From assembly GCA_029237775.1 (NCBI GenBank), contig JAQZBR010000004.1:186001-250000 (forward strand): DNA of 64,000 nt. The letters are read 5' to 3'. A program made the translations under genes and the position numbers. This document shows, in pieces, positions 12,138 to 33,668 of this stretch. The first letter of the stretch is position 1. Each line of letters begins with the position of its first letter. Below the pieces are notes generated by a model, which saw only the letters and a program-made list of their open reading frames with translations, was not told the DNA's origin and searched no databases. This DNA is from Bacteroidota bacterium (GTDB lineage: Bacteria; Bacteroidota; Bacteroidia; 2-12-FULL-35-15).

Positions 12138-13739
12138 TTAATAACGAACTTTTCTGAGACGAAGTATGGTTGCGTATAGCAGCATAGCAATGCTTAGGCA
12201 CAATGCTGCCCTGGCGATATAATCACCAAAACGGGTGTAAAATGTCCACTCGTTATTCAACTGAATCTCTTGTGAAATAACTGCAGGTTCCCAATATGCA
12301 GTTGGTTGGTGAATTTCACCAGAAGGGCTTATAAAACACGAAACACCGGTATTTGCGGAACGAGCGATCCACCGTCTCGTTTCAATAGCACGCAACCTTC
12401 CGTATTTCAAATGCTGCTTATACCCCGGAGTATCACCCCACCAGCCGTCATTGGTAATAATTGAAATAAAGTTGGCCCCGTTTCTTACATACTCACTTAC
12501 GTATTCACCATAAACACTTTCATAACATACCACGGGAGCCGTCTTCATCAACTGATCGTCAGAAACGAACACACTGCGTTCTTCCTGAATTCCAAGTCCG
12601 CCCGTTGTTCCGCCCAGATCAATTGCTACACTCTCCAGATGTTTAAAGATGAAGGGAAATGGCATTTGCTCAACCCCAGGAACAAGCTTTGATTTATGAT
12701 ACACCTGGATGGGCCTTTTATTATCGACCTGCAATGCGGTATTATATGAATCGTAATAGCCTTCCTCCTGCGTGAACTTTCTCGCGGTAACGGAAAGCTC
12801 TTCACCCGGCTCATAAACCTTTCCGGTAGAAGCACCGATCACAATCTTTAACTTAGGATAATCCTTCAGAAACATTCTCAACATCTGAATACTTCCGCTT
12901 TGCTCAAGCTGGCTTTCCCAGATATTTTCCGTGAGGGCTGTCTCAGGAAATAAAACATAATCTGTATTCTGATCCACTTTGCTAGCCGCAAGTTCAAGCA
13001 TCTTCTGCAGCTGCTCTTCGAAAGGCGCATCGAATTTTTCATTGTAAGGATCTATATTCGGCTGAACCGCGACAACCGATATTCCGCCTTTGGAATATTT
13101 ATCTGCAAATTTTCCGACAGCAAATGATAAAAGAACAGGGATAACTATAAAAGCAGAAATGATCAAAGCGTTCCTTACACGAGCCGATCTTGTTCTGTTT
13201 TTGTAAGCTTTGATCGCTTCATAGATCAACACATTCACAATCAATATCCATAAGCTTCCGCCAAACACTCCTGTATATTCGTACCACTGAATGATCGATG
13301 GTGCATCGGCAAAAGCGTTACCTAAAGTCAGCCATGACCAACTCAGCTCCCAGTTAGAATGGATGAATTCAAAAGAAAGCCAGAAACAAATAAATAAAAC
13401 ATAACCCCAGTTAGCCCCAATCCTGTTTTTTATGCGGTGAAAAAGGATAAAGGGAATGCTCATCAGTAAAGCGTTACAGAAGATGGCCAGAGCAGCTCCT
13501 CCGAATGAAGCATTTTTAACCCACCATGTAGTGAGTATATTCCAGAGAAAAAATGCGAGGTAAGCGCACACAAATAAAAAGCGTGGTTTTAACTTTTCGT
13601 TCAGGTAGAATTCGTTCTCTACTGCAAGAAGTGGTATAAAAGCGACAAACAAAAAAGGAAATACACCATTCGGAAACCAGCCTACAGCCAATAACAGGCC
13701 ACTAAGTAAGGAGAGTAAAACGAGCTGATGTTTTTTCAT
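12138..13739 (-). CDS. lnt: Apolipoprotein N-acyltransferase
   Basis: A 533-residue inner-membrane enzyme that adds the third acyl chain to the N-terminal Cys of lipoproteins. The N-terminal ~200 residues hold about six to seven membrane helices (first LLSLLSGLLLAVGWFP). They are followed by a periplasmic nitrilase (carbon-nitrogen hydrolase) domain and a last helix near the end. The catalytic triad is visible: Glu266 in FPETALTE, Lys351 in SKLVPGVEQMPF and Cys405 in VVCYESVYGEYV. It fits the many lipoproteins expected here, such as GldB and MsrB. It is 21 bp after the small secreted protein gene 13761-14387 on the same strand, so it could be the last gene of that operon. Confidence 0.93.
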   Translation of the reverse strand: MKKHQLVLLSLLSGLLLAVGWFPNGVFPFLFVAFIPLLAVENEFYLNEKLKPRFLFVCAYLAFFLWNILTTWWVKNASFGGAALAIFCNALLMSIPFILFHRIKNRIGANWGYVLFICFWLSFEFIHSNWELSWSWLTLGNAFADAPSIIQWYEYTGVFGGSLWILIVNVLIYEAIKAYKNRTRSARVRNALIISAFIVIPVLLSFAVGKFADKYSKGGISVVAVQPNIDPYNEKFDAPFEEQLQKMLELAASKVDQNTDYVLFPETALTENIWESQLEQSGSIQMLRMFLKDYPKLKIVIGASTGKVYEPGEELSVTARKFTQEEGYYDSYNTALQVDNKRPIQVYHKSKLVPGVEQMPFPFIFKHLESVAIDLGGTTGGLGIQEERSVFVSDDQLMKTAPVVCYESVYGEYVSEYVRNGANFISIITNDGWWGDTPGYKQHLKYGRLRAIETRRWIARSANTGVSCFISPSGEIHQPTAYWEPAVISQEIQLNNEWTFYTRFGDYIARAALCLSIAMLLYATILRLRKVRY

Positions 13740-13760: not shown

Positions 13761-14387
13761 TTAGTTCTGATCTGAACTTATAAGACATTTGGGAATATTC
13801 CACTTTCCTCCCCATACGTTTGTGTCGATAAAAGTGCCATCACAGTATAAATAATTTCCTCCTTTATCTTTTTTTATAATGGAAAGCTTCCCTGTCTTCA
13901 GTGATTCCAAAACAATGTTTTGAATATCTTTCTTTTCTCCAAAGCGTTTTTTTTCACCCACTAGATCAGCTCCCACTTTATTATTCATCAGATCCATTTC
14001 GCAACTTACTGAATCCGGAAGAATAGAATCTTCAAGCTTATGCTTTTTGAAAGTCCGGTAATTTCCTTTTTCATGAGCCTTTCCAAGCTTTAATGACTTA
14101 TGTTTACCGATTGAATTTGTCAGAGTCGCCATCCAGTACGCATGCCTGAACGCATCCAGCTTCCCGCCATTCATATCTGTTCCGATTGTACCCGTGTTTT
14201 TTACTGAGTCCACATCCGAAAGGACCATGCTTGTTTTTTTCATCGCTTTTTTCGCGACAAAAGGATGAAATATTACCCAACATTTTTCAGAAAAAGAAAC
14301 TGATTTGAATTTTTGAAGGGAAGATTGGGAATAGGAAAATGTAGAATAAAAAAAAGCAATGATCATAAATGAAACGGTCCTTATCAT
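13761..14387 (-). CDS. Exported protein resembling the DUF6973 domain
   Basis: A 208-residue protein with a signal peptide (MIIAFFYSTFSYSQ). The core has the motif NGGKLDAFRHAYWMA (near 95), then LGKAHEKGNYRTF, CEMDLMNNKVGADLV and a C-terminal YLYCDG strand. The DAFRHAYWNA-like motif with later His and Asn residues recalls the DUF6973 family, which is found in many secreted and phage-associated proteins. The assignment is from memory of the motif and is uncertain. Its start overlaps the stop of the C25 peptidase gene by 4 bp (ATGA), which indicates translational coupling and a role tied to that peptidase. Confidence 0.6.
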   Translation of the reverse strand: MIRTVSFMIIAFFYSTFSYSQSSLQKFKSVSFSEKCWVIFHPFVAKKAMKKTSMVLSDVDSVKNTGTIGTDMNGGKLDAFRHAYWMATLTNSIGKHKSLKLGKAHEKGNYRTFKKHKLEDSILPDSVSCEMDLMNNKVGADLVGEKKRFGEKKDIQNIVLESLKTGKLSIIKKDKGGNYLYCDGTFIDTNVWGGKWNIPKCLISSDQN

Positions 14388-17300
14388 CTCATTAAATACA
14401 TTTTACCCCAACCTTTTTTGAAATACTGGTCGGCAGCAGTTTCTCTCTTTTCAATCAGGCTACCATTAATTTTTGTTACCACATGATAAAGGTAAACTCC
14501 ATTTGCGAGCTGGTCTCCAAATTCATCTTTGCCATCCCACGAGAATTCCGATATGTTCCTTCCGATATGAATTGAACCGATTTCACTCTCGTAGATCTCA
14601 CGCACGATCTTTCCTGTGATTGTCATGATCTGAATCTTAAATCCGGTTGGGACTTCAGAACCCGTAAGTGTAAACACAAATCGCGTAGATGTGGAAAAAG
14701 GATTGGGATAATTCATTACCTCGGTAATGGTTGACCGGTTTATCACTTCAAAATTTATTTTATAATCAATCGCGCCCGACTGGTTATCTGATTTATCTTT
14801 TGCCTGAACGAGCAACTGATAAGTCCCATCCTCAAAAAGTACAGGAGAATAATTAATGCGACAGCTGTTATCAGGTAAAATCGCAGGAATAAAACTCATA
14901 GTTTCTCCGAAATAAACCCGTTGTGCAAGAGATGAAGAGGGCGCTTTAATGAAAACTTTAAAATCATTCGTATCATTCAAGGCCAGGAAGCGATTCTCAT
15001 CTTTTAACTGGATGACAATATTGGGCTTTGCAGAAACGATATCGTTATTCAGAATATGAACCCCGTCAAAGGTTACGTCCAGCAAGGGATTTACATGATC
15101 CGTATTAATTGAAAAGGGGACGCGTAATATATTATTGAAATGATACTGTTCAAGTTGCGAGCGTGATTGTCCTACCGGGTTGACCTCCATCCAAAGTGCA
15201 TTCATTCCCTGAAATCCGGTAGTATTAACTGATATCGTATCAATAATAACTTCCGAAGGCAAAAAAGGTTTTTTCTTCAGCTTTGAAGGCAACGGATGCT
15301 GAACCCGGGCATCATCCTCTATCCAGTATGTAACTAATAAACTGTCCTGTGTAAATGCATATTCACTTATGTTCTGGATCGGAACACGAATAATAAGATT
15401 ATCACCTTCCTGTATTGTTTCATTGCTGAAATTGAAACCTGCTACTGGATTGATTGCCGCTTCAGGAACGGGTGCAAAGAATACCTGCCACTTATCCAAT
15501 TGCGGTGCTGTATGAAGCACATCATCACGCATGAAAGCCATCAGCTTTATTTTAGGGAACAATGTAGCATTCACGTAAGAACCTAAATTCGCTATATTAA
15601 GCTGCGTTTCATTGAAGCTTGCAAGCACTGAATCCTGTCCGTTTAATTGTATCCCGATCAGTTTGATTTCGATACTGTCAGCATGTCCGGGACCGTCTGT
15701 TGAATGCCAGTTCCAGGAAAGCGAATCCCAGCTGAATGCAGGCCCTATCTCCGGTGAAGCGATGTAACCTTCATTCCAGTTGGTTGTAATAGTTGTGTCC
15801 AAAACAATTACGGAATCAGGAGAAGATGCGAGAATTTCTTTCGCAGTTCCTGGATTCGGGGATACTCCTTTTTTCCCCCACAAAATATATGGACGACCGG
15901 CAGGTAAAGTATTAAGATCGGAAGCGCCAAGTGTTTCAAATGCATTTATTAAACCTGCAGGATAGGTTCCGAATTTTGGACCCATCTGCGAATATGCAAG
16001 CACATAATAACCTGCAGGAATGTTATTATTAATAAAATTTTCCATCCGCGTTAAACCTGCAGTAGTGTCATCAGGAAATTCAAATGCAAGCTCTGGTGAG
16101 TGACCGACCGGATATCCGGTAGTGCTTCCATAAGTTCCACCAGGATAAACTCCCGTTGGATAATTATTTACAGGTTCCCCGCTCACGGGATCAATGATCG
16201 CGAAAGTGAATCCTGAATGATTCGGAACCAGCCAGCTGGAAAGATATTTGGTATCTCCATTGATCTTATACACCACATCATAATAATTAATGGCTGTCGG
16301 AGGAATTCCATCTTTGCAGAAAATATTCTTTACATCATTAATGAAATCAAACTTCCTTGCCGGCCGGTTATATTTCACGTATTGATAACCATCGTTCTTA
16401 AACTGAAAAAAGTGTGCTTGCTCCCAGCCTCTCTTCGACTGAATATATTGGAAAGAACTTTCCTTCCAGGTGAAACCGTTTGAAGGACTTGTAGAATCGG
16501 GACTCACCCGCCAGTAATAAACTTTTGAATGTGTCAGATTTATTGGAGGATGCCATTTAACAACCCCACCTCCGGAATTTACTATTGTAGTGAGTATAGG
16601 ACTGCTAAACGAATCAGATGTATCAAGCTGAAAGACATAATTGGTTGTTGGTGCCAACGGATTGGCAGTTGATGCCTTGAGTGTAACTGTATCTTTCGGA
16701 ATAATAGCGAATTCATAAGGATAAACAGGAATAATGGATCCTCCGTTTATGAGCAGGTCCACAAGCGTAGTAGAGTTATTATTCTCGTTAAGCTCATCTA
16801 CTTCCAGGTTTCTGTCCACCGTAACCTTTATCTTGTTAAGGCCAACAGCGTTAACATAGTCAAATGGAATTTTTATTGTAATCGTATCGCGAAATTTTGG
16901 TGCCGGACTTCTGTTTAGGTATACGACCGTGTCTCCATCAGGATAAATCCTTGTTACTTCTGTAAATATCGATTGGTTTGTTGCCATTCCGAGGTTTCTA
17001 CGGACGATGTTAACTGTTATAGAATCTCCTTCTACAAAATAAACATCGTTATTGGTGATCTCGTAATCAGGTTTGTCAAACGAATGGATCTTTAAACCCG
17101 GATCACCCTGCAGGTTCATTTCGTAGCAGGTGTTACGCGCTATCGAATCGCCTTGGCTTAAAGCCAGTGGCTGTATTGCAAGTATGGTTTGCTGGATCTG
17201 TTTCCCAACAGGCTTATTGTAATTCTTTCTGGCAAGCTGTGCATAGAACTCGGCTGAAAAATAATTCAAGGCATACGGAACACCCAAACCAACTGAACCG

Positions 17301-19396
17301 AGGTAACCAATCACACCATTTCCATCAAGAAAAATATATTCTTCGCTTGAGCTGATCCCCGCTGAATGAAAATCACCTGCATAACATGAGTTAGCGAGAA
17401 GGAAAGGATATCGTCCCGGCTTAGGGTGATAGGTGCTCCAATCATCGATGCTCTGATCAAACCCTGTTCCTGATGCATGTCCGAAAAAGGTCATTAAGGA
17501 TACGCCATTATCAATAAGGTTTCTTAATGTATCTGAAGAATTTATAGTGATAGGCGCAGATGAATTCTTGAAAAACTCTTTGATTACATTCCCACCGAAT
17601 TTCACATCTTCAATGGTATCCTTATATGCGTTCAAATAATTTCTGAAAGTACTTTGTTCTCCTGTGTTTGAACCTCCTCCGAAATGCAATACATACTTCA
17701 TCCATTCTTCAGGTGTAGTTAATCCTTCGTATTCGACCATTTTGTCCAGATACATTTTAACTTGTGCATCTGTCCGTGCGGATAAACGGCCTGTAGGAAT
17801 TGCAGGGCTTAAATTTGTTCCGTTCAGCCCTGAAGTAAGCAGATTATCGCTTGAAGGATAACCATAAGACGGAACGAAACATGAAATATAGCCTACAGCA
17901 TTCTGCCTGATCGAATTCAGATGAATTGATTTACCCAGTAAAAACAAATCCCGGGGTGGAGCAAGCGGATGCTGATCCAGCATAAAATCAGCAAAGCCAC
18001 GGATAGCAAGCGGACTTTTAACAATTCCGTATGCAAACTGATCATACAGCTCATCAATATCTGCGAGTACAACATTATGAGAGCCACCAGGTAAGGATGA
18101 ACGATAAGTTTTATAATCTGTTGCTGACGATATCAATGCTTTGTTGCTAATAATGATATAAGCTGAATCAGCCGGAATAGCTGTGTAATCCGTGAACTGA
18201 GCGCTTGGGCTAACCGGGATTATTGAAGTTATATTTGTGATATTCCCCTCCGAAGTGATAAAGCATTTTTTTTCCGACCCGTCCGGACTATCTGTCACGA
18301 GTGCTTTGTATGTTGCACCGGAAACAACTTTTACTCTCTTACCATTTGTGAGATCATATAACCGAACTACACCCGAAGGATTGAAATTGCTCAGATTTAA
18401 ATACGATTTAGCACTAAGTGTGTTGTCCTGCAGATAGAACAAAAACGAGCTTTGATTTTCAAGATTCGGAAGATGAGGGTACTTCAGATAAATATAAGCA
18501 ACAGCAGTTCGGTTCGAATTAAAAGTCGGATCTGCAACACTTGTAAAAACAAAAGGGGTTGTGGTGCTACCCAGAAGTGCGGGTGAAATACCTTTCGCAA
18601 ACATTGCAGGAGCGTAGCCCCAGAAATTGGTATCCGCCAATTGATTGTTTGTTCCAAACTGTATTTTTAAATGGTGGTCTGTTGGAAGTGAAACATCTTT
18701 GGAAGCGCCCACTGCCACAGTTCTGATGATCGCATTCGGACCGGCAGTATATGCAAAAGAAGTATTGACCATATTGTAGGTCTTGCTTTGCCCGAGATTG
18801 ATCACACCATCAAACCAGCCTTCTGCTTTTGTGTAACGAGAATCTGTTCCACCAGAATTATTAGTCTCACCGATATAATATTCACTGTGAAAATCATGAA
18901 TTTCTTCTTTAAAGAAATAATTTACCGGTGTACCATAAGCTGCGAACAGCGTATCATTCTCCGAATCCATCCTGCTGCCATTGGTGGAATTGTCCCAGGT
19001 GAGGTAATAAACAGCCGTATCATTAACAAGACTATAATAAGGATTGGGAAGAAATGCCGTGTTTCTGTAAAGAAGAGAATCCAGCGCTCCATCATTTTTC
19101 TCTGCATAGAACTCGATGAAGTCTCCTGCACCAAAAACATTATCGCTTTCCCCTTCCACATAAATATTTTGCTGCTTTCCTTTATTGAAGATCTGAAAAT
19201 GATGAGGATCAACAGTGCTCAGATCAATTCCGGCAGCAGCGAGCGTGGCAGGACCAATGCGATAAATTCCGTTTTGAGCGATCTTGATTTTATAATAAGA
19301 CTGAGAATAGGAGATCCATTCGTTACCATAAGGCTGTGACCTTACACTAACAAAAACAAGCAATAAAGTACATATCGCGAGTAAGCGTCTAATCAT
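14384..19396 (-). CDS. Large C25-family (gingipain/PorU-type) cysteine peptidase
   Basis: A 1670-residue exported protein with signal peptide (LLLVFVSVRSQ). The N-terminal ~430 residues are beta-rich, including the WISYSQSYYKIKIAQNGIYR block. The C25 catalytic domain spans about 440-790, with catalytic His640 (FFGHASGTGFD) and Cys671 (LLANSCYAGDF); the 31-residue gap matches the gingipain layout. A CARDB-like domain follows (VDELNENNNSTTLVDLLI), then further Ig-like modules. The C-terminus is a FlgD-like fold (NYPNPFSTSTRF, WDGKDEFGDQLANGVYLYHV). PorU, the T9SS sortase, belongs to this family, but it is usually nearer 1100-1300 residues with a different end. This is better read as a PorU-like paralogue. 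The PorV/PorQ-like gene lies 21 bp upstream. Confidence 0.8.
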   Translation of the reverse strand: MIRRLLAICTLLLVFVSVRSQPYGNEWISYSQSYYKIKIAQNGIYRIGPATLAAAGIDLSTVDPHHFQIFNKGKQQNIYVEGESDNVFGAGDFIEFYAEKNDGALDSLLYRNTAFLPNPYYSLVNDTAVYYLTWDNSTNGSRMDSENDTLFAAYGTPVNYFFKEEIHDFHSEYYIGETNNSGGTDSRYTKAEGWFDGVINLGQSKTYNMVNTSFAYTAGPNAIIRTVAVGASKDVSLPTDHHLKIQFGTNNQLADTNFWGYAPAMFAKGISPALLGSTTTPFVFTSVADPTFNSNRTAVAYIYLKYPHLPNLENQSSFLFYLQDNTLSAKSYLNLSNFNPSGVVRLYDLTNGKRVKVVSGATYKALVTDSPDGSEKKCFITSEGNITNITSIIPVSPSAQFTDYTAIPADSAYIIISNKALISSATDYKTYRSSLPGGSHNVVLADIDELYDQFAYGIVKSPLAIRGFADFMLDQHPLAPPRDLFLLGKSIHLNSIRQNAVGYISCFVPSYGYPSSDNLLTSGLNGTNLSPAIPTGRLSARTDAQVKMYLDKMVEYEGLTTPEEWMKYVLHFGGGSNTGEQSTFRNYLNAYKDTIEDVKFGGNVIKEFFKNSSAPITINSSDTLRNLIDNGVSLMTFFGHASGTGFDQSIDDWSTYHPKPGRYPFLLANSCYAGDFHSAGISSSEEYIFLDGNGVIGYLGSVGLGVPYALNYFSAEFYAQLARKNYNKPVGKQIQQTILAIQPLALSQGDSIARNTCYEMNLQGDPGLKIHSFDKPDYEITNNDVYFVEGDSITVNIVRRNLGMATNQSIFTEVTRIYPDGDTVVYLNRSPAPKFRDTITIKIPFDYVNAVGLNKIKVTVDRNLEVDELNENNNSTTLVDLLINGGSIIPVYPYEFAIIPKDTVTLKASTANPLAPTTNYVFQLDTSDSFSSPILTTIVNSGGGVVKWHPPINLTHSKVYYWRVSPDSTSPSNGFTWKESSFQYIQSKRGWEQAHFFQFKNDGYQYVKYNRPARKFDFINDVKNIFCKDGIPPTAINYYDVVYKINGDTKYLSSWLVPNHSGFTFAIIDPVSGEPVNNYPTGVYPGGTYGSTTGYPVGHSPELAFEFPDDTTAGLTRMENFINNNIPAGYYVLAYSQMGPKFGTYPAGLINAFETLGASDLNTLPAGRPYILWGKKGVSPNPGTAKEILASSPDSVIVLDTTITTNWNEGYIASPEIGPAFSWDSLSWNWHSTDGPGHADSIEIKLIGIQLNGQDSVLASFNETQLNIANLGSYVNATLFPKIKLMAFMRDDVLHTAPQLDKWQVFFAPVPEAAINPVAGFNFSNETIQEGDNLIIRVPIQNISEYAFTQDSLLVTYWIEDDARVQHPLPSKLKKKPFLPSEVIIDTISVNTTGFQGMNALWMEVNPVGQSRSQLEQYHFNNILRVPFSINTDHVNPLLDVTFDGVHILNNDIVSAKPNIVIQLKDENRFLALNDTNDFKVFIKAPSSSLAQRVYFGETMSFIPAILPDNSCRINYSPVLFEDGTYQLLVQAKDKSDNQSGAIDYKINFEVINRSTITEVMNYPNPFSTSTRFVFTLTGSEVPTGFKIQIMTITGKIVREIYESEIGSIHIGRNISEFSWDGKDEFGDQLANGVYLYHVVTKINGSLIEKRETAADQYFKKGWGKMYLMR

Positions 19397-19417
19397 TAAT
19401 GGTAAATAATCTGTTCT

Positions 19418-20500
19418 CTATGATTTTGGTTTTTTCTTATTGATATCAATTTTCAATGAAAAAACATTTGAGTATAATGCTACAGACTGATCGCCAATAT
19501 CTGTCAGAGCATAGTCAATGTAAACCGATTTTATACGAACTCCCACCCCTATATTAGGTTGCATTGTTTTAATTCTTTTTCCTTCAGGATCTGTGTATGA
19601 CTGGATATTCCCAAGCCCGGCACGCAGGTAGATCATATCCATATATCCTGCTTCGAGACCGATATGCGGATCCATGCTGATCGCTTTGCTTTTTATCAGA
19701 ACGTTTCTTTTTCCATCAAAAGTATTATCGAGATCAAGCTCGGCCATCAGTGAAACTTTCTTTCCAAACTCGAATCGCCTTGCTGCCCCCAGAAGAAGCT
19801 TAGGCAAAGTAATTTCAACCCCGTTTTCAGGGATCTCATTTCCTGTTTGAATAAATACTGCTTTTGTTTCGTCCGACAGATTGTAACTCCATGCATTGAA
19901 AGTGGAAGTTACATCGCGCGCCATTGCTGCGAATTTCCACTTCTTATAGTCATACTGAGCACCTGCGTCAAGTCCAAAACCCCAGGCACCGGCAAAATCT
20001 CCTACTTTTCTTCGGATGATCTTTGCGCTCCCCCCAACATGAAGTCCGGAGATTTTTAAGTCTTTAGCATAAGAAACGAGAAAGCCCCAATCGACAGCCG
20101 AAAAGGTTGTGATCCGGTCATAATCCACGTTTCCATTAGCATCAATAAGTTCAGTAGTATTAGGAATATCATCCACGCCAAAGCGGATCAGGCTGACACC
20201 AAGCACACTTGCGCTGTCAAGGCGGGTTGCGAAAGCACCGTAGTCATATTTAGCGATCCCTGCAAAGTATTCACTGTGCATTAAAGCGATCTGCCGTTGG
20301 TTACCAATACCATGCAATCCGGCAGGATTCCAATAGCCTGCGGTAACATCATTTACAGAAGTGATATAAGCATTGGACATCCCTAAAGCCCGGGCGCCTA
20401 CACCAATATTTAGAAATTCATTACTGTATTTCGGAGCCTGAGCATTTGCTGCTGCGATTATGGCGGATCCTAAAAAAGCGAACAGGTGTCTTTTCTTCAT
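19418..20500 (-). CDS. PorV/PorQ family outer-membrane protein
   Basis: A 360-residue protein with signal peptide (LFAFLGSAIIAAANAQ). It then shows the family entry motif FLNIGVGARALGMSNAYI and VTAGYWNPAGLHGI. A beta-barrel follows with strands such as WGFLVSYAKDLKISGLHVG and the last strand LYSNVFSLKIDI. PorV and PorQ are FadL-like barrels of the T9SS attachment complex; PorV shuttles cargo from the translocon to PorU. Canonical PorV has a different entry sequence, so this is a family member and not clearly PorV itself. It is the first gene of the unit with the C25 peptidase. A candidate promoter lies just upstream. Confidence 0.82.
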   Translation of the reverse strand: MKKRHLFAFLGSAIIAAANAQAPKYSNEFLNIGVGARALGMSNAYITSVNDVTAGYWNPAGLHGIGNQRQIALMHSEYFAGIAKYDYGAFATRLDSASVLGVSLIRFGVDDIPNTTELIDANGNVDYDRITTFSAVDWGFLVSYAKDLKISGLHVGGSAKIIRRKVGDFAGAWGFGLDAGAQYDYKKWKFAAMARDVTSTFNAWSYNLSDETKAVFIQTGNEIPENGVEITLPKLLLGAARRFEFGKKVSLMAELDLDNTFDGKRNVLIKSKAISMDPHIGLEAGYMDMIYLRAGLGNIQSYTDPEGKRIKTMQPNIGVGVRIKSVYIDYALTDIGDQSVALYSNVFSLKIDINKKKPKS

Positions 20501-20608: not shown

Positions 20609-21205
20609 ATGGCCCAGTCAGGTTTTATTTATAAGAATATACAGATCTACCGTCTGTGTATGAACCTGCTTTACAAGGGTAGATATCAGGAAAGGTTCGA
20701 AGTTATTTCCAGGCTGATAAAAGGTACGAAGGTAACTGAGTTGTGCTTTGGAGATACTATCATCGCCAGGTACTGCAGGAAAAATAACATTTCCTGGAAA
20801 GGGTATGATACAAATGATGCATTTGTCAATGAAGCCAAAGCTCAAAATTATAATGCGGAGATGTCAGACATCAATGATATCGAAAGTTTTGAAAAAGCTG
20901 ATACTTGTATCATGAGCGGCTCACTTTATCATTTCCACAATAGCCTTGAAGAAATTATAAAAAAGATGCTTGATTGTGCGCCACACGTAATCATCTCAGA
21001 GCCAATTCTCAATTTATCTGCATCCAGGGGAATAATTGGTAAATTAGCCAAAGGAGCTGCAAATGTAAATGGAGGGGAACATGGTTTCAGGTTCACAGAA
21101 GAATCCTTCTTAAGGGAAGTGATCAAAGCGAGTAAAAAACTTAATTTCACGTTTAAGGTCAGCGAGTACCACAGTAAAGATATTATTATTGAGATCAGTA
21201 AATGA
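20609..21205 (+). CDS. Class I SAM-dependent methyltransferase-like protein
   Basis: A 198-residue cytoplasmic protein. The region VTELCFGDTIIARYCRKNN followed by WKGYDTNDAFVNEAK looks like motif I (E.C.GD) and the acidic residue that binds SAM ribose. MSGSLYHFHNSLEEII corresponds to the post-motif region of Rossmann methyltransferases. The usual GxGxG is degenerate (CFGDT). It heads a tight set with a GT2 glycosyltransferase (4-bp ATGA overlap) and a polytopic membrane protein, so it probably modifies a lipid-linked sugar or its carrier. The substrate is unknown. Confidence 0.7.
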   Translation: MAQSGFIYKNIQIYRLCMNLLYKGRYQERFEVISRLIKGTKVTELCFGDTIIARYCRKNNISWKGYDTNDAFVNEAKAQNYNAEMSDINDIESFEKADTCIMSGSLYHFHNSLEEIIKKMLDCAPHVIISEPILNLSASRGIIGKLAKGAANVNGGEHGFRFTEESFLREVIKASKKLNFTFKVSEYHSKDIIIEISK

Positions 21206-22140
21206 ATCCGGAAATAAGCATAGTAATTCCAGTGTACAACAGTGAGAACATTTTGTTCCCTCTGACAGATGCTATTTCAGAAGCGTTAAAGCACAAGGTT
21301 AATTATGAAGTCATTTTAGTGAATGACGGAAGTAAAGACAACAGCTGGCAAAAAATAAAAGAGCTGACTCAGAACCACAAGAACATTACCGGAGTTAAGC
21401 TGATGAAGAACAGTGGCCAGGACAACGCTTTGCTGGCAGGCCTCAGACTTTCAAAAGGAAATTATACAGTAATAATGGATGATGACTTTCAACATCAGCC
21501 CTCAGATATTATTACCCTTTATAATGAATGCATGAAAGGATATGATGTATGTTATGCTCACTTCAGTGAAAAGAAACAGAGCCTCCTTAAAAATACCGGA
21601 AGTGATATTAATGGCCGCATGGCTCAGGTACTGATAAAAAAGCCGAAAGAGATCTACCTTTCACCGTTCAAAATAATTAACAAGCCTACAATAAATGAGA
21701 TCATGAAATTCGCAGGGCCGTATCCTTATATTGATGGCATCATATTGAGCATCACTTCTAACATCACTCAAATCGACATTCAACACATGTCGCGGCACAA
21801 TGGAAAAAGCAACTATACTATGTCCAGGTCATTTTCCGTTTTCATGAAGCATTTTACGGGCTTTTCATTGCTTCCACTCCGAATTGCAACCATTGCCGGC
21901 TGCATTGCTACATTTATCGGAGTATGCCTGCTCATTAAATATTTATACGATTATTTCGTAACAAAAAACTTTGTGGAAGGCTGGACCACCGTTGTGGTTC
22001 TTATCATTCTTTTCAGCGGACTCATTCTCATCACGCTTGGCATTGTCGGTGAATATATAGGACGTATGTATCTCGCAGTAAACAACAAACCACAATACAG
22101 CATTTCGGAAATTGTTAAGCAGGATGAGAACGCAAAATAA
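21202..22140 (+). CDS. Family 2 glycosyltransferase, DPM/GtrB type with two C-terminal membrane helices
   Basis: A 312-residue protein whose N-terminal GT-A domain begins EISIVIPVYNSE. It has the nucleotide-binding VNDGSKDNSW, the NSGQDNALLAGL block and the metal-binding DDDFQHQPSD. Two membrane helices lie near 225-250 and 265-290 (VVVLIILFSGLILITLGIVGEYIGR). This layout fits polyprenyl-phosphate glycosyltransferases such as ArnC, GtrB and DPM synthase, which load a sugar from NDP or UDP onto undecaprenyl phosphate at the inner membrane. It overlaps both neighbours (4 bp upstream, 17 bp downstream), so all three are translationally coupled. The next gene looks like the membrane enzyme that would use the lipid-linked sugar. 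Confidence 0.87.
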   Translation: MNPEISIVIPVYNSENILFPLTDAISEALKHKVNYEVILVNDGSKDNSWQKIKELTQNHKNITGVKLMKNSGQDNALLAGLRLSKGNYTVIMDDDFQHQPSDIITLYNECMKGYDVCYAHFSEKKQSLLKNTGSDINGRMAQVLIKKPKEIYLSPFKIINKPTINEIMKFAGPYPYIDGIILSITSNITQIDIQHMSRHNGKSNYTMSRSFSVFMKHFTGFSLLPLRIATIAGCIATFIGVCLLIKYLYDYFVTKNFVEGWTTVVVLIILFSGLILITLGIVGEYIGRMYLAVNNKPQYSISEIVKQDENAK

Positions 22141-27402: not shown

Positions 27403-29439
27403 TTATTCTTTGATCAGCTTAAGAATAGTCGGTTGATTATTCACGTTCACTTTTACAAAGTAGATACCTTTTGCAAACTCCTGAGTATCGACAGGCAGGT
27501 TATAAGCACCGCTCATTTTACCATATGATTTGGATGCAACCAGCTGCCCGTTTGCTGAATAAACTTCCATACTTACTTCTGAGTCATTCTGCAAGCTCAA
27601 AGAAACATTTGTAAAGCTATTAGCAGGATTCGGCATTAAGCGGATCATATCCGGAGCTGAAGCAATTGTGTTTACATCAACTGACAATCCAGGCAACCAA
27701 CCGTTCGCTACAGCTTCACTGATTGTCGCTGTTCCTGCGTTATTGATCTTTCCTGATGGCTCGATCATCATTCCTACGATATGGATCTGAGAAGCATCCC
27801 AGGCCGCAGGTAGTGTATAGGAGAAATTATGCGTAAAGGTCTGACCAACCAATGCACTAGCACCGAATGCATAAGGCATACCTGCGAAGCTTGGGCTTAA
27901 AGCACGTGCAACATGGCTGTAGTTCATTTGTGCAGCAGGAACAGGATTTGGAAGGGATTCGAAACCACCCATAACTCCTGAGCCACCACCCGAATAAGCA
28001 TTCACCTGATTGTAAGCGCTTGTAGTTCCGGTTACGCTGTCCTCAGTGATCACACAAGCAACTTTATAATTTCCTGTAATATTTGCAGCCATCGTTGTTG
28101 TGATAGACACTTTTAACTGGCGTGTAGTGGAGTTATAAGTTGCTCCGTTAACTATAGTTCCTTCCGGTGCAAGAACAATTCTGTCAAGGAAATCCTCTTC
28201 AATTTGACTAGGATCAATTTCCAATCCTCTGTCAACCAAAGCCGAAGGATAACCACCGATCAATTGTCCCATTGCTGCATCATAAGCAGTTACAACCATC
28301 GGATCGGAATTATGCACAGCAATACCTGCATAATAATCGCCATATTTTTCTGTCATAAGGTCCATATAAACAGCACCACGCGGACACCACTGGCACCATG
28401 TGCCGGTACCTTCTTCAGCCACAACAACCTTTCCGGCAGCTGCCTGCACGGGAGTAATTGTAGTTGTTATTGTATTGTCAGTTCCGTCACCGTCAGCTCC
28501 ACCATTGTTAACATTACTGATCGTAGCCGTGAATACATTCGGCCCAGCGACCAATGTGAAAGGGGCAGGAAAATTAACAGTATATGTTCCAAGAGAAGGG
28601 ATACTAACACCGGTAACATTTTGGACAACAGGAGTACCGCCATTCTGATCAAGTGTCATGTCAAATGAAGTGATAGTGGTTGTTCCGAGGTTACGCATTT
28701 TGACAGACGCCATACGTTGCTGCCCAACCAATCCGTTTGTTACAGAAATAAGATTATTTGCACCGTTAACAGAAGGTAATGTGTAAGGCCCTACATTATA
28801 AGATACGTCATCCACCCAGAAGCTCGCAGCATTATCTGCCGGGAAAATATCAATCGCAAATACCTGGTTATTGGCATTTGACCACGTTCCTGCAGAAGTT
28901 CCATTAATAGAGAGACCCCACGTGTTGGTATTCAAATTTGCATCAATCTTTAATTCGAACCAGCTCCCGACCGGATAAGTTGAGGCAAGGACAGTTGTTC
29001 CACTGTTCTGAATAATTATATTACCTGCATTATCCATCCAGCAATCCAGAACATACATTCCCCCCATTGTTGTGGTTCCCTGAAAATTGAAATAAGCTGT
29101 TTTCCCCGAAGGAACCTTAAACCAGGAAGTAAAATTAAATTGACCTGTTGTTAATGGAGATGTACCGAAAGGAAGGATCACATCATCCGGCCCACCGGTT
29201 GTTGCGGTTGAAACAAAATAAATTGATTTTGAACCTCCGGTAGTGTGGTTATCTGACGAAACCACAGGGACATCTTCTGTGCCGCCACCTGTAGTGGATG
29301 ACCATGTCCTCCAGTTTGGTGACTGCATCCCCAGCAAAGGAGTTGTCAGTGTATAACTTTCAAAGTTATCGGTAAAGGTTTGAGCATTTGTTGCAAGAAC
29401 AGAACAAACACATGCAATTAAAAGTGTAGCTTTTTTCAT
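27403..29439 (-). CDS. T9SS cargo protein with Omp28-type thioredoxin-like domain
   Basis: A 678-residue exported protein with signal peptide (LLIACVCSVLATNAQ). Residues about 20-215 form a jelly-roll/concanavalin-like module (TDNFESYTL, SIYFVST, WFELKIDANLN). A CARDB-like Ig domain follows. The Omp28-like part near 335-600 starts VVVAEEGTGTWCQWCPRG with a thioredoxin-type CxxC (Cys349, Cys352) and GGYPSALVDRG. A T9SS type A sorting domain ends the chain (LMPNPANSFTNVSLSL, GIYFVKVNVNN). Omp28 relatives are surface proteins of Bacteroidota. The CxxC suggests disulfide chemistry, though activity is unproven. It lies 248 bp downstream of the SprB-repeat gene on the same strand. Confidence 0.82.
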   Translation of the reverse strand: MKKATLLIACVCSVLATNAQTFTDNFESYTLTTPLLGMQSPNWRTWSSTTGGGTEDVPVVSSDNHTTGGSKSIYFVSTATTGGPDDVILPFGTSPLTTGQFNFTSWFKVPSGKTAYFNFQGTTTMGGMYVLDCWMDNAGNIIIQNSGTTVLASTYPVGSWFELKIDANLNTNTWGLSINGTSAGTWSNANNQVFAIDIFPADNAASFWVDDVSYNVGPYTLPSVNGANNLISVTNGLVGQQRMASVKMRNLGTTTITSFDMTLDQNGGTPVVQNVTGVSIPSLGTYTVNFPAPFTLVAGPNVFTATISNVNNGGADGDGTDNTITTTITPVQAAAGKVVVAEEGTGTWCQWCPRGAVYMDLMTEKYGDYYAGIAVHNSDPMVVTAYDAAMGQLIGGYPSALVDRGLEIDPSQIEEDFLDRIVLAPEGTIVNGATYNSTTRQLKVSITTTMAANITGNYKVACVITEDSVTGTTSAYNQVNAYSGGGSGVMGGFESLPNPVPAAQMNYSHVARALSPSFAGMPYAFGASALVGQTFTHNFSYTLPAAWDASQIHIVGMMIEPSGKINNAGTATISEAVANGWLPGLSVDVNTIASAPDMIRLMPNPANSFTNVSLSLQNDSEVSMEVYSANGQLVASKSYGKMSGAYNLPVDTQEFAKGIYFVKVNVNNQPTILKLIKE

Positions 29440-29687: not shown

Positions 29688-32600
29688 TTATTGTGTAACC
29701 ACTATCTTCTGGTTGATCACCTTTTGATTACTCACTCCTGTGATGAAATAAATTCCATTGGTTAAACCATCGATATTGATGCTGAAGTTATTGTCGGCAT
29801 TCAACTCCATTGTTCTTACATTTTGTCCTAATTCATTTGCGATCCGGTAAGTTCCTTTGAAACTAGCTTTGATTGTAAACACTCCGCTGTTAGGATTAGG
29901 AGAGATGCTGATCGGGCTATTGTTAACGGATGTAGCGATCCCGTTTCCAACGATTGCAACGCAGGCAGAAGTATCAGAGCAGACTCCGTCTGTAATTACC
30001 ACAGCGTAGCTCCCGTCAATTAAAGCAGTAAAGCTTTGGTTAATTTCATTGGCAATTGCTGTGTTTGTATTGCAGTCGATCCATTGATAGGTAACGGCTC
30101 CTGTATTGTTTGCAGTGATTGTTAATACGTTAACAGAAGTTGTAACGTCTATCGCGTTCGGCTCAGAAATAGTTACAGAACCGGTAGCCTCACAACCTGC
30201 AGCATCAGCTACAGTATAACTGTATACACCTGCAATAAGTAAATTTAAATCTTCAGTGGTTGCGTTATTGTCCCACAGGTAAGTATAAGAGCCTGCACCG
30301 CCCGTTACTGAAATATCTATTGACCCGTCAGTCGCTCCGTTACATGTTGCATTCAGAGAAGAAGAAGTTACAGTAGGGGCACCTGTATCGGACACATTAG
30401 CAATAGCGGTTGAAGAACAACTGTTGGCATCTGTTACTGTAACAGTGTATGAACCTGCGGATAGTCCCGTCTCTGTTGCAGCGGTACCGTTGGTTGACCA
30501 AAGGTAAGCTAATGCACCTGTTCCTCCAGATGCAAATACAGTAGCAGTTCCTGTAGTATTGCCACAATTAGAATTGGTAGTAGTTGTAGATGCTGTGACA
30601 GCAGATGGCTCTGTAACCACAACTGTTGTTGTTGAAGCACAACCATTATCATCTGTAACAGTATAGTTGTAAGTCCCCGCATTAACTGTAAATGTTCCGA
30701 TTCCTGAATAAGGAGCAGTTCCATCCATTGCATTGACTGTTACATCTGCAGTAGCACCATTACAAAGAATTGTTGTAGCTGAAGACATCGCCATCAAAGC
30801 ACTCGGTTCTGTTACGGTAATACTAGTTGAAGTGGAACAACCGTTAGCATCGCTTACAGGATATGTGTATGTCCCCGCAGATACGCTGAATGTGTTTGTA
30901 CCTGTATAGGCGCCAGTTCCTCCTGTTGCAGTCACTGTAATATCAGCTATACCACCGTTACAAAGAATAGTCGTAGAGGTTGATGAGGCAATCAATACTA
31001 AAGGCTCGATAATAGTAATACTAGTAGGAGATGTACATCCGTTTGCATCAGTAACAGTATAATTATAGGTTCCTGCAGGCATAGTAAAAGTTCCGGTTCC
31101 TGAATAAGCAAGAGTTCCACCTGTTGCACTTACAGTGATGTCAGCAGTTCCTCCGTTACATAGAATTGTTGTAGCAGAAGATGAAGCAGATAATGCAGAA
31201 GGCTCAGTAACAGTAATGCTTGTTGAAGCAGTACATCCGTTTGCATCTGTAACGGTATAGCTATGTGTTCCAGCTGTTACCGAAAACGATCCTGCCCCAG
31301 TATAAGGTATAGTTCCACCTGTTCCTGTTGCAGTTACGATTGTAGTTCCACCATTACATAGAATTCCAGGCGCACTTGATCCGGCAGTTAATACAGCTGG
31401 TTCTGTGATAGTAAATGATCGGGTGGTAGAACAGCCGTTCAGATCAGTTATAGTCACAGTATAGTTCCCTGCGGCCAGCCCTGTTGCAGTTGCAGCAGTT
31501 CCACCAGCAGGTGCCCATGAATAAGTGAATCCACCGGCTCCACCTGTTGCATTTACTGTTGCTGTTCCGTTTGCTCCTCCATTACATGAAATATTTATTT
31601 GTGAAGTTGTAGCTGTAATGACTGAGTTTTGAGTTATGCTAAATGATTGAGTATCGAGACACCCGTTTGCATCCGTAACAGTTACAGTCCAGGTACCTGC
31701 AGTTAAGCCTGTCACGGAATTGCTTCCATCGCCCGCAGGAGTTCCAGGAGTCCAGTTATATGTTAAGGCATTTGTCCCACCACTAGCAGAAACAGAAGCC
31801 GATCCAGTAGAACCACCGTTACAAGCAACATCTGTTTGAGATAAAGGCGTTACAACAATCGCAGGTGCTTCAGTTACAGAAGCTGTAACAGTTCCTGTAC
31901 AACCTTTGTTATCAGTTATGACAACGGTGTAAGTTCCTGCAGTCAAACCTGTACGGTCTTCGGTGGTCGGTCCTGAAGGCAACCAGTTAAAAGTATATGG
32001 GCCGGTTCCACCAGAAGGAGTTAAGTTAATAGCACCGTTAGATCCTCCGAAGCAAGTCACGTTGGTTACTACAGTTGTTCCTGAAACAGGACTTGTTGGT
32101 TGAGTTACAGAAGCTGTTGCTGTTGCTGTGCAGGCGTTGTTATCTGTAATGACCACGGTGTAGGTTCCTGCAGTCAAACCTGTACGGTCTTCTGTGGTCG
32201 GGCCTGAAGGCAACCAGTTAAAAGTATATGGGCCGGTTCCACCATTTGGCGTTAAGTTGACAGCGCCATTAGAGCCTCCAAAACAAGCTACATTTGTTAC
32301 AACGGTAGTTCCTGAAACCGGAGATGTTGGTTGAGTAACTGACCTGGTAACAGTTCCGGTACATCCGTTTGCATCTGTAATAACAACTGTGTAAGTTCCT
32401 GCAACAAGTCCGGTACGGTCTTCTGTAGTAGGGCCGGATGGCAACCAGCTAAAAGTGTATGGCCCTGTCCCTCCATTTGGTGTTAAATTGATAGCACCGT
32501 TCGATCCACCGAAACAAGCAACATTCGTTACAACAGTTGTTCCTGATACAGGCCCTGTAGGCTGAGTAACAGAAACTGTTACTGTTGCTGTGCAGCCGTT

Positions 32601-33668
32601 GTTATCAGTAATGACAACGGTGTAAGTTCCTGCAACAAGGCCTGTACGGTCTTCTGTGGTAGGGCCTGAAGGTAACCAGTTAAAAGTATATGGCCCGGTT
32701 CCTCCTGAAGGTGTTAAGTTAATAGCACCGTTAGATCCTCCGAAGCAAGTGACGTTTGTTACTACAGTGGTGCCTGCAACAGGTGCTGTTGGCTGAGTTA
32801 CAGACGCTGTAACAGTTCCTGTACAAGCGTTGTTATCAATTATGACAACAGAATAAGTTGCTGCAACAAGTCCTGTACGGTCTTCTGTGGTCGGGCCTGA
32901 AGGCAACCAGTTAAAAGTATATGGGCCGGTTCCTCCTGAAGGTGTTAAGTTGATAGCACCGTTCGTTCCACCGAAACAAGCAACATTCGTTACAACAGTA
33001 GTTCCAGAAACAGGATCAGGCTGAGCTACAACGGCAGTAACCGTATCGTTACAACCATTAACATCCGTGATCAAAACGCTAAACGTTCCCGCAGTTAGAC
33101 TAGTCAGATCCTCTGTTGTTGGGCCTGAAGGTAGCCAGCTGTATGTATATGGAGCTACTCCGCCACTTGGAGTTAAGTCGATAGCTCCATCAGAACCACC
33201 GAAGCAAACTACATCGGTAATCACGGTAGTTCCCAAAACAGGAGATGTTCCGGAACCTGCAGTATTCATAGTCATGGTAACAGTCGCAAGCGAACCGGAA
33301 TTGTTGCAAGAATATTGTGAAAGCAGAATTCTGACATAACCGCAGGAAGACGCTGTAAAGGAAAGATTACTTTGTAGGCCGCAAGCATCATCATTATAAG
33401 CATAATAAGTTCCTGTCGCATCATCGTATACTGTTAATTGAGTATCGTAAGCACTGCTGCCGCAAGTGGAAACGTTGTAATTCGCACCTGCAGAAACAAA
33501 TGCCAGCATATACTGCCCTGCCCCATACGTTTGAGAAGTTGAGGATCCAACAGAAGGAGGCGTCAGCAAACCCGCTACCAGGCTGCCATTATTCGGACAT
33601 TGAGAAAATAGATTATTTCCAATAAATAAATGAACTGCAAGCAGAGCTGCAAGAATCGTGTGTTTCAT
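29688..33668 (-). CDS. Large SprB-repeat adhesin with T9SS sorting domain
   Basis: A 1326-residue exported surface protein. After the signal peptide (LAALLAVHLFIGNNLFSQ) comes a pre-peptidase-like beta domain with Cys residues (to about 130). About fourteen SprB-type modules of 60-77 residues follow, each with a CFGGSNG or CNGG start, a TPSGGTGPYTFNW-like strand and GTYTVVITDNNGC. The first six are nearly identical, the later ones diverged. An Ig-like end (VTYQWIDCNTN) and a type A sorting domain (ISPNPNSGVFTI, GIYFITGVSN) follow. In F. johnsoniae the far longer SprB is the gliding adhesin. This shorter protein is probably a related filamentous adhesin. A candidate -7 element (TACTTTTG) lies at 33701-33694. 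Confidence 0.87.
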   Translation of the reverse strand: MKHTILAALLAVHLFIGNNLFSQCPNNGSLVAGLLTPPSVGSSTSQTYGAGQYMLAFVSAGANYNVSTCGSSAYDTQLTVYDDATGTYYAYNDDACGLQSNLSFTASSCGYVRILLSQYSCNNSGSLATVTMTMNTAGSGTSPVLGTTVITDVVCFGGSDGAIDLTPSGGVAPYTYSWLPSGPTTEDLTSLTAGTFSVLITDVNGCNDTVTAVVAQPDPVSGTTVVTNVACFGGTNGAINLTPSGGTGPYTFNWLPSGPTTEDRTGLVAATYSVVIIDNNACTGTVTASVTQPTAPVAGTTVVTNVTCFGGSNGAINLTPSGGTGPYTFNWLPSGPTTEDRTGLVAGTYTVVITDNNGCTATVTVSVTQPTGPVSGTTVVTNVACFGGSNGAINLTPNGGTGPYTFSWLPSGPTTEDRTGLVAGTYTVVITDANGCTGTVTRSVTQPTSPVSGTTVVTNVACFGGSNGAVNLTPNGGTGPYTFNWLPSGPTTEDRTGLTAGTYTVVITDNNACTATATASVTQPTSPVSGTTVVTNVTCFGGSNGAINLTPSGGTGPYTFNWLPSGPTTEDRTGLTAGTYTVVITDNKGCTGTVTASVTEAPAIVVTPLSQTDVACNGGSTGSASVSASGGTNALTYNWTPGTPAGDGSNSVTGLTAGTWTVTVTDANGCLDTQSFSITQNSVITATTSQINISCNGGANGTATVNATGGAGGFTYSWAPAGGTAATATGLAAGNYTVTITDLNGCSTTRSFTITEPAVLTAGSSAPGILCNGGTTIVTATGTGGTIPYTGAGSFSVTAGTHSYTVTDANGCTASTSITVTEPSALSASSSATTILCNGGTADITVSATGGTLAYSGTGTFTMPAGTYNYTVTDANGCTSPTSITIIEPLVLIASSTSTTILCNGGIADITVTATGGTGAYTGTNTFSVSAGTYTYPVSDANGCSTSTSITVTEPSALMAMSSATTILCNGATADVTVNAMDGTAPYSGIGTFTVNAGTYNYTVTDDNGCASTTTVVVTEPSAVTASTTTTNSNCGNTTGTATVFASGGTGALAYLWSTNGTAATETGLSAGSYTVTVTDANSCSSTAIANVSDTGAPTVTSSSLNATCNGATDGSIDISVTGGAGSYTYLWDNNATTEDLNLLIAGVYSYTVADAAGCEATGSVTISEPNAIDVTTSVNVLTITANNTGAVTYQWIDCNTNTAIANEINQSFTALIDGSYAVVITDGVCSDTSACVAIVGNGIATSVNNSPISISPNPNSGVFTIKASFKGTYRIANELGQNVRTMELNADNNFSINIDGLTNGIYFITGVSNQKVINQKIVVTQ
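31860..33240. repeat. 231-bp tandem repeats within the SprB-type gene
   Basis: The marker GTTCCTGC (or close variant) recurs at 31933, 32164, 32395, 32626 and 32857, each exactly 231 bp apart, then at 33085 after 228 bp. Each unit encodes one 77-residue module with the shared LPSGPTTEDRTGL core. Sequence identity between units is high at the DNA level, including synonymous positions. Confidence 0.9.

What the first reader, a model, noticed from the sequence alone, without database searches (positions are those of the whole stretch)
13761..20500. A second T9SS-like attachment unit: PorV/PorQ-like barrel, giant C25 peptidase and a coupled small secreted protein
The three genes run 19418-20500, 14384-19396 and 13761-14387 on one strand with 21-bp spacing and a 4-bp ATGA overlap. 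The peptidase has an intact His640/Cys671 pair but is 1670 residues long, with several Ig-like modules and a FlgD-like end unlike canonical PorU. The barrel is of the PorV/PorQ family but lacks the usual PorV entry sequence. Known PorV hands cargo to PorU for anchoring. A dedicated shuttle, sortase-like peptidase and small exported partner (DUF6973-like) could be a specialised surface-attachment or processing system. That the small protein is a substrate or inhibitor is inference.
Basis: partly seen in the sequence, partly recalled or inferred. Interest (0 to 1): 0.65.

Follow-up and report, generated by a model that had tools for sequence, protein, structure and literature searches.

The report
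Second bacterial surface sortase–shuttle pair
Besides its standard machinery for fixing exported proteins to the cell surface, this bacterium carries a second, distinct sortase-like enzyme with an outer-membrane partner; the small exported gene behind them looks like a lipid-head-group enzyme related to a bacterial toxin and to animal Wnt proteins rather than a dedicated partner.

Summary
The three genes, their spacing and the His640/Cys671 pair are as described. The genome also has canonical PorU (two tandem copies, the second lacking both catalytic residues), PorV and PorQ, so this is a second unit. NCBIfam already names the peptidase and barrel as putative PorU2 and PorV2; I found no paper on them. 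PorU2 is a separate, widespread C25 clade with an unbroken His/Cys pair and an added FAM3/ILEI-like domain not found in five PorU-type proteins scanned. PorV2 lies directly upstream in 27 of 27 testable genus loci and 19 of 33 loci of other families, but also exists without PorU2. The small gene is not a conserved partner: in the loci examined it follows PorU2 only in this genus, with about two losses there, and elsewhere sits by unrelated genes. Its model (pLDDT 93) and invariant His/Glu/Asp match a T6SS effector (BteO) and the lipocone/Wnt fold, so it is probably an exported lipid-head-group enzyme. Best reading: a second T9SS attachment module with a loosely linked lipocone neighbour. Sortase activity is inferred.

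The parts
19418..20500 (-). PorV2: outer-membrane barrel of the PorV/PorQ family (360 aa)
   Evidence: NF052325 PorVQ2 521 bits, cut-off 325; PorV model 31 (cut-off 250), PorQ model 65 (cut-off 220); 75-89% identical in 16 relatives
14384..19396 (-). PorU2: C25 sortase-like protein (1670 aa)
   Evidence: NF052324 781 bits, cut-off 450; PorU model 192 bits, cut-off 420; tree
17090..18160 (-). C25 catalytic domain of PorU2 (residues 413-769) with His640 and Cys671
   Evidence: PF01364 176 bits; residue counts
15866..16057 (-). FAM3/ILEI-like domain of PorU2 (core match, residues 1114-1177); no match in 5 PorU-type proteins scanned
   Evidence: PF15711 21.0 bits, below cut-off 27; 10 of 28 relatives match at E<=0.01, best 3.2e-7; profile hits FAM3C, FAM3A, FAM3B and POMGnT1 chains; 5 PorU-type proteins without it at E<=0.1
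14387..14728 (-). C-terminal FlgD-like domain of PorU2, CTD-like (residues about 1557-1670)
   Evidence: FlgD_ig 20.2 bits and TIGR04183 19.9 bits, both under cut-off; FlgD_ig at E<=0.01 in 28 of 28 relatives
13761..14387 (-). DUF6973 protein, 208 aa: signal-like N-terminus (read by eye), then a predicted lipocone (Min-Wnt-like) domain; His82, Glu106, Asp132
   Evidence: PF22322 65.3 bits; model pLDDT 93.2; BteO and Wnt matches; residues invariant in 42 of 42
12138..13739 (-). Lnt, apolipoprotein N-acyltransferase, next gene after DUF6973
   Evidence: PF20154 78 bits, PF00795 81 bits; next after DUF6973 in 14 of the 17 genus loci where the ORF caller found DUF6973
21202..22140 (+). GT2 glycosyltransferase, divergent upstream neighbour (context only)
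   Evidence: PF00535 89 bits; same family in 19 of 28 genus loci (read off)

Best explanation
The locus encodes a second T9SS attachment module, paralogous to PorV-PorU and kept beside it. PorU2 is exported by Sec, crosses the outer membrane through the T9SS using its FlgD-like C-terminal domain, and is held at the surface by the PorV2 barrel. Its His640-Cys671 C25 domain cleaves the sorting domain of a subset of T9SS cargo and passes the cargo to a surface glycan, which its extra FAM3/ILEI-like domain may help to recognise, a job that the separate PorZ protein does for PorU in Porphyromonas. The DUF6973 protein is not a stable component: it is a predicted exported lipocone (Min-Wnt-like) enzyme acting on phosphate-linked lipid head groups, placed in the same run of genes in this genus and as closely tied to lnt as to porU2. 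Shown: separate clade, intact dyad, PorV2 adjacency, canonical PorU/PorV elsewhere, conserved lipocone-type residues and fold match. Inferred: co-transcription, export, PorV2-PorU2 binding, sortase activity, cargo choice, glycan binding, lipocone chemistry.
For: PorU2 and PorV2 models met, PorU/PorV/PorQ models not met. Canonical PorU, PorV and PorQ in the same genome. Clade separation; His and Cys in 83 of 83 PorU2 and PorU2-like domains. A profile of 28 relatives matches the solved PorU 6za2 over positions 35-764, E 5.1e-53, far better than gingipain R at 9.9e-17. PorV2 directly upstream in 27 of 27 genus loci and 19 of 33 other loci (read off; the script says 17 because it looks at the first PorU2 ORF only). 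Of 33 PorU2-over-cut-off genomes 25 have PorV2 over cut-off, against 43 of the other 362. Large T9SS secretome: 150 type A matches with the list full, 47 type B over cut-off. Some divergent relatives lie among glycosyltransferases: GT1 8 and GT2 5 of 41 neighbours; GT1 9, WecG 7, GT9 3 of 48. Lipocone reading: and PMC12419801 (sections 6, 7, 9 and passages).
Against: No experiment on any PorU2 or PorV2 was found. PorV2 over cut-off occurs in 43 sampled genomes without PorU2 over cut-off, so it is not dedicated to it. 14 of 33 non-genus PorU2 loci have no PorV2 next to them. The NCBIfam cut-off and the tree do not agree fully: L210 (G079, 456 bits, over cut-off) falls on the PorU side, and the tree is rooted at its midpoint only. 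Glycan-gene neighbours are not a feature of the core PorU2 families: GT2 in 4 of 86 neighbours (first 25 families shown). The FAM3 match in the window protein is below cut-off, and the model of residues 878-1670 is poor (pLDDT 61, pTM 0.36). No substrate set was identified. C25 members include ordinary proteases.
Confidence: 0.5

Rival explanations
1. PorU2 is a gingipain-like surface protease (maturase or nutritional) held on PorV2, not a sortase.
For: C25 includes gingipains, and the profile also matches gingipain R, E 9.9e-17. Residues before the catalytic Cys differ: A/M then T in most PorUs, N or L then G or S in most PorU2s.
Against: The match to PorU is far stronger and covers the N-terminal half as well (E 5.1e-53); NCBIfam calls it a putative sortase.
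Confidence: 0.28
2. DUF6973 works with Lnt or envelope lipids generally and is linked to PorU2 only by position: a periplasmic lipid-head-group enzyme of housekeeping kind.
For: Lnt is next after DUF6973 in 14 of 17 genus loci; in L243 DUF6973 and Lnt stay together with no PorU2 in the fetched stretch, although that genome has PorU2 on another contig. Relatives in Flavobacteriaceae and Bacteroidales sit by other genes. Lipocone enzymes are predicted to act on phospholipid or polyprenol head groups (PMC12419801).
Against: Two loci (L160, L163) keep PorU2-DUF6973 without Lnt next door. The nearest solved relative is a T6SS effector, not a housekeeping enzyme.
Confidence: 0.55
3. DUF6973 is an antibacterial toxin domain exported as a diffusible effector.
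For: Sequence and fold match to the Bacteroides fragilis T6SS effector BteO (E 7e-08; Z 15.0); standalone secreted Min-Wnts are predicted toxins in PMC12419801 (passage).
Against: Kept at one place for long in the genus, with about two losses; no other domain was matched in its 208 residues. No immunity gene was recognised, but none was searched for.
Confidence: 0.2
4. The first reader's dedicated trio, with the small protein as substrate or inhibitor of PorU2.
For: 4-bp overlap in the window and next-gene position in 11 of 25 testable genus loci.
Against: Invariant His/Glu/Asp pattern of an enzyme, no sorting domain matched, and no adjacency found outside the genus.
Confidence: 0.06

Closest known systems
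NCBIfam NF052324 / NF052325, 'putative PorU2 / PorV2'
   Same: The window proteins pass both cut-offs; the pair is the conserved unit.
   Different: The names are predictions of a model library. In the open-licence paper library 0 papers hold 'PorU2' and none of those listed for PorV2, PorU-like, PorU homologs and similar terms is relevant.
PorU-PorV of the T9SS attachment complex
   Same: C25 His/Cys pair, N-terminal half alignable to PorU 6za2, FlgD-like end, barrel of the PorV/PorQ family.
   Different: Separate clade; 1670 against about 1300 residues; FAM3/ILEI-like domain; fails the PorU and PorV models.
BteO, Bacteroides fragilis T6SS effector (PDB 9uu0)
   Same: DUF6973 shares fold (Z 15.0 over 151 residues, 20% identity) and the His, AHE and NNxxG blocks.
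   Different: The window protein is a single domain with a signal-like start and no further domain matched.
Lipocone superfamily, SAW clade (Min-Wnt) (PMC12419801; sections 6, 7, 9 and passages seen)
   Same: Helical core with His (H2), Glu (H3), Asp (H4) and NxxG in H4.
   Different: The Arg of sNxxGR is replaced by I, V, A or L in 42 of 42. The paper's main text does not name DUF6973; its supplements were not seen.

Membership tests
PorU2 (NF052324) | Whole-protein score over 450 bits | tested here: met
   780.9 bits
PorU2 (NF052324) | Catalytic His and Cys | tested here: met
   His640, Cys671
Canonical PorU (NF033707) | Score over 420 bits | tested here: not met
   192.4 bits; the genome's own PorUs score 1345 and 1259
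PorV2 (NF052325) | Score over 325 bits | tested here: met
   521.2 bits
Canonical PorV (NF033710) or PorQ (NF033711) | Score over 250 or 220 bits | tested here: not met
   31.1 and 64.9 bits
T9SS sortase | Transpeptidation of cargo to a surface glycolipid | not testable with these tools
   Needs biochemistry
T9SS type A sorting domain (PorU2's own export) | TIGR04183 over 23 bits | tested here: inconclusive
   19.9 bits for PorU2 (under cut-off); of the genome's two PorUs one scores 23.8 and the other is not listed at E<=0.001
FAM3/ILEI domain | PF15711 over cut-off 27 | tested here: inconclusive
   21.0 bits in the window protein; 10 of 28 relatives match, best E 3.2e-7; FAM3C 4.6e-4 by profile
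DUF6973 (PF22322) | Score over 27 bits | tested here: met
   65.3 bits
Lipocone superfamily | Conserved His (H2), Glu (H3), Asp (H4) | tested here: met
   His82, Glu106, Asp132 in successive helices of the model, 42 of 42; distances in the model were not measured
Lipocone superfamily | Lipocone fold | tested here: inconclusive
   Wnt Z 10.9-12.1, SAA 5.7-6.7; the tool warns that helical models often reach such Z by chance
SAW clade / Min-Wnt | sNxxGR motif in H4 and a fifth helix | tested here: inconclusive
   NNxxG kept but Arg absent; a further helix at model residues 132-144; its packing was not measured
Dedicated three-gene system | Small gene conserved beside PorU2 | tested here: not met
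   0 of 33 and 0 of 20 loci outside the genus

The most novel reading that the evidence does not exclude
In this lineage the locus is a self-contained anchoring route: divergent GT2/methyltransferase/membrane genes build a lipid-linked sugar, the exported lipocone enzyme swaps or releases its phosphate-linked lipid head group in the periplasm, and PorU2, reading the glycan with its FAM3-like domain, joins T9SS cargo to it on PorV2. It would be a second sortase pathway with its own acceptor chemistry and a Wnt-related enzyme in protein anchoring.
Probability: 0.1. Interest if true: 0.8.

Novelty: new variant of a known kind. Interest (0 to 1): 0.5.

Why it matters
If PorU2-PorV2 is a working second sortase module, many environmental Bacteroidota would sort T9SS cargo between two attachment routes, and one could ask which sorting domains go where. 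The FAM3/ILEI-like domain in a bacterial sortase-like protein, the tandem PorU with a dead copy, and an exported relative of a T6SS effector with a Wnt-like fold kept as an apparently housekeeping gene are each testable. I found no paper on PorU2 or DUF6973 by name; the dead PorU copy and the FAM3 domain were not searched for in the literature.

Tried and rejected
Substrate or inhibitor role of the small protein: set aside because of its invariant enzyme-like residues and lack of conservation. A statistical link of DUF6973 to PorU2 in the genus (20 of 28 PorU2+ against 1 of 8 PorU2- genomes, Fisher p 0.005) was discounted, because the tree needs only two or three changes (presence there is scored by genome, not by adjacency). 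Link of PorU2 to glycan gene clusters: seen in two sets of divergent relatives, not in the core families; no background rate was measured beyond that contrast, and 10 of the 20 weaker loci fall outside the PorU2 clade. Structure of PorU2 residues 878-1670: low confidence; its Foldseek list is mostly generic beta-sandwich proteins, with PorU 6za2 at ranks 26-27, and was not used. No PDB match to PorU2 alone or to the genus alignment at the limits used; only the diverse profile gave matches, and one of its 28 rows, L210, lies outside the PorU2 clade. The PorV2 profile matches solved PorV only weakly (E 0.018). A scan of viral contigs gave no relative of the small protein. Papers on BteO: none relevant among the 8 listed (listing only); two searches for B. 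fragilis effectors gave no identification (listings). The single 'PorV2' text hit in PMC10994853 is a citation number after PorV (passage). No complex prediction was available.

Rows dropped: the 90-row tree kept 10 of 28 genus rows; the A5 profile took 28 of 45 long relatives; A8 took 86 of 91 listed neighbours, leaving out the four of L196 (broken PorU2) and one cut ORF of L197; A2 took 41 of the 49 length-filtered DUF6973 relatives plus the window. Three genus loci (L129, L152, L173) could not be tested for the downstream gene. The simple ORF caller missed DUF6973 in L162, where the family search finds it; it counts as absent in the 17 of 25. The script looks at the first PorU2 ORF of each locus, so it misses the PorV2 next to other PorU2 ORFs in L196 and L197 (17 by script, 19 by reading).
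Full report
Observation. The three ORFs, the 21-bp gap and the ATGA overlap are as stated. The 1670-residue protein has His640 and Cys671. NCBIfam assigns it to PorU_rel_Nterm, 'putative type IX secretion system sortase PorU2' (780.9 bits, cut-off 450) and the barrel to PorVQ2, 'putative PorV2' (521.2 bits, cut-off 325), while the canonical PorU, PorV and PorQ models stay below their cut-offs. The small protein is DUF6973 (65.3 bits, cut-off 27).

Canonical machinery is elsewhere. The unnamed 4.08-Mb genome has three C25 matches. Two are tandem canonical PorUs on contig C5 (1345 and 1259 bits), followed by PorV (496 bits) and preceded on the other strand by gldJ and a PorP-family gene; PorQ is on C11 (367 bits). 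Both PorUs end in the FlgD-like domain, so that end does not set PorU2 apart. The second PorU copy has Tyr for the catalytic His and Ala for the Cys; a relative (G401) has the same tandem with only the Cys lost.

PorU2 is its own clade. In a tree of 90 C25 domains (quick search, no bootstrap, midpoint root) PorU2 of the genus and of other families, with ten weaker relatives, forms one side of a branch with SH-aLRT 99; eleven other rows of the weaker set fall with PorU instead, among them L210, which is just over the NCBIfam cut-off. The His and the Cys are each kept in 83 of 83 domains labelled PorU2 or PorU2-like, against 24 and 23 of 25 on the PorU side. PorU2 over cut-off occurs in 33 of 395 phylum genomes and 28 of 36 genus genomes. 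A profile of 28 relatives (27 of them in the clade) matches solved PorU (6za2) at E 5.1e-53 and gingipain R at 9.9e-17, and a later stretch matches FAM3C (4.6e-4), FAM3A, FAM3B and POMGnT1 (0.013). Pfam ILEI is found in 10 of 28 of these at E<=0.01, below cut-off in the window protein, and in 0 of 5 PorU-type proteins, two of them canonical by model. That POMGnT1's stem domain binds sugars is recalled, not from a call. In Porphyromonas PorZ binds A-LPS and brings it to PorU (PMC8545088, passages), which suggests by analogy a glycan-reading role for the extra domain.

The pair. PorV2 is directly upstream of PorU2 in 27 of 27 testable genus loci and 0 of 20 weaker loci, and in 19 of 33 loci of other families (read off; 17 by the script). 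Of the 33 PorU2 genomes 25 have PorV2 over cut-off; so do 43 of the other 362. The association is real, but PorV2 also occurs without PorU2, mainly in two sampled families (f5, f4). In Flavobacterium johnsoniae type A sorting domains depend on the PorV shuttle and type B ones on PorP/SprF shuttles (PMC12618676, passages), so a second PorV-type shuttle fits known logic. The genome is rich in cargo (150 type A matches with the list full; 47 type B over cut-off).

The small gene. In the genus DUF6973 occurs in 21 of 36 genomes, 20 of them with PorU2, and is the next or second gene in 17 of 25 testable loci, with Lnt after it in 14 of 17. A PorU2 tree shows one clade of seven and one further genome without it, that is about two losses. 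Outside the genus no locus examined has it beside PorU2. A scan of named genomes gave 57 loci, including Aureibaculum, Wenyingzhuangia, Lutimonas and Bacteroidales; those outside the PorU2 loci have neighbours such as an aminopeptidase P, a TPM-domain protein, a VPS10-like protein or an M28 peptidase. Of six such genomes checked, the 3 named Flavobacteriaceae have no PorU2 over cut-off, whereas the other 3 have one, not in the stretch fetched around the small gene.

What the small protein is. A model from 42 sequences is confident (pLDDT 93.2, pTM 0.89). The best solved match by sequence profile (E 7e-08), Foldseek (E 6.1e-03) and VIA (Z 15.0) is BteO, a Bacteroides fragilis T6SS effector; next come Wnt proteins (Z 10.9-12.1) and serum amyloid A (Z 5.7-6.7). 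Wnt and serum amyloid A are the animal members of the lipocone SAW clade of PMC12419801, and the superfamily's inferred active site is His, Glu and Asp on helices 2, 3 and 4. The window protein has His82, Glu106 and Asp132 in three successive helices, invariant in 42 of 42, and NNxxG without the Arg of sNxxGR. The Wnt Z values alone would not be proof, as the tool warns for helical models; the residue pattern and BteO carry the argument. The main text of that paper does not mention DUF6973, and no paper of the held library does.

Context. Divergently transcribed from porV2 lie a weak methyltransferase match, a GT2 glycosyltransferase and a protein without Pfam match; the first two families recur in 18 and 19 of 28 genus loci (read off). 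Divergent PorU2-like genes elsewhere in the phylum sit among glycosyltransferases, the core PorU2 families do not. This keeps open, without proving, the idea of an anchor glycan made next door.

Verdict. A genuine second PorU/PorV-like pair, already given putative names by NCBIfam, with a plausible but untested role as a second attachment module; the third gene is a lineage-specific neighbour best read as an exported lipocone enzyme.

Noticed in passing
L005:7515-15391 (G000:C5): Tandem porU genes; the second has catalytic His to Tyr and Cys to Ala, a predicted pseudo-sortase. G401 (L302) has the same tandem with the Cys lost.
   Followed up: partly
29688-33668: 1326-aa protein with ten SprB repeats and a T9SS sorting domain.
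   Followed up: no
27403-29439: 678-aa protein with an Omp28 domain and a T9SS sorting domain.
   Followed up: no
L211, L220, L222, L225-L229: C25 relatives outside the PorU2 clade; L211, L220 and L225-L229 and/or their kin lie beside WecG/TagA-type and other glycosyltransferases, and L229 holds two C25 genes in tandem.
   Followed up: partly
G000:C6:31839-32813 (L009): A further PorV/PorQ-family protein (143 bits) below the cut-offs of the PorV, PorQ and PorV2 models.
   Followed up: no
L164:11983-12610: DUF6973 gene split into two overlapping frames in G401: broken gene or assembly error.
   Followed up: no
L196 (G115): PorU2 interrupted by stop codons while the PorV2 beside it is open.
   Followed up: no
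sampled families f5 and f4: PorV2 over cut-off without PorU2 in many genomes: a barrel of unknown job there.
   Followed up: no
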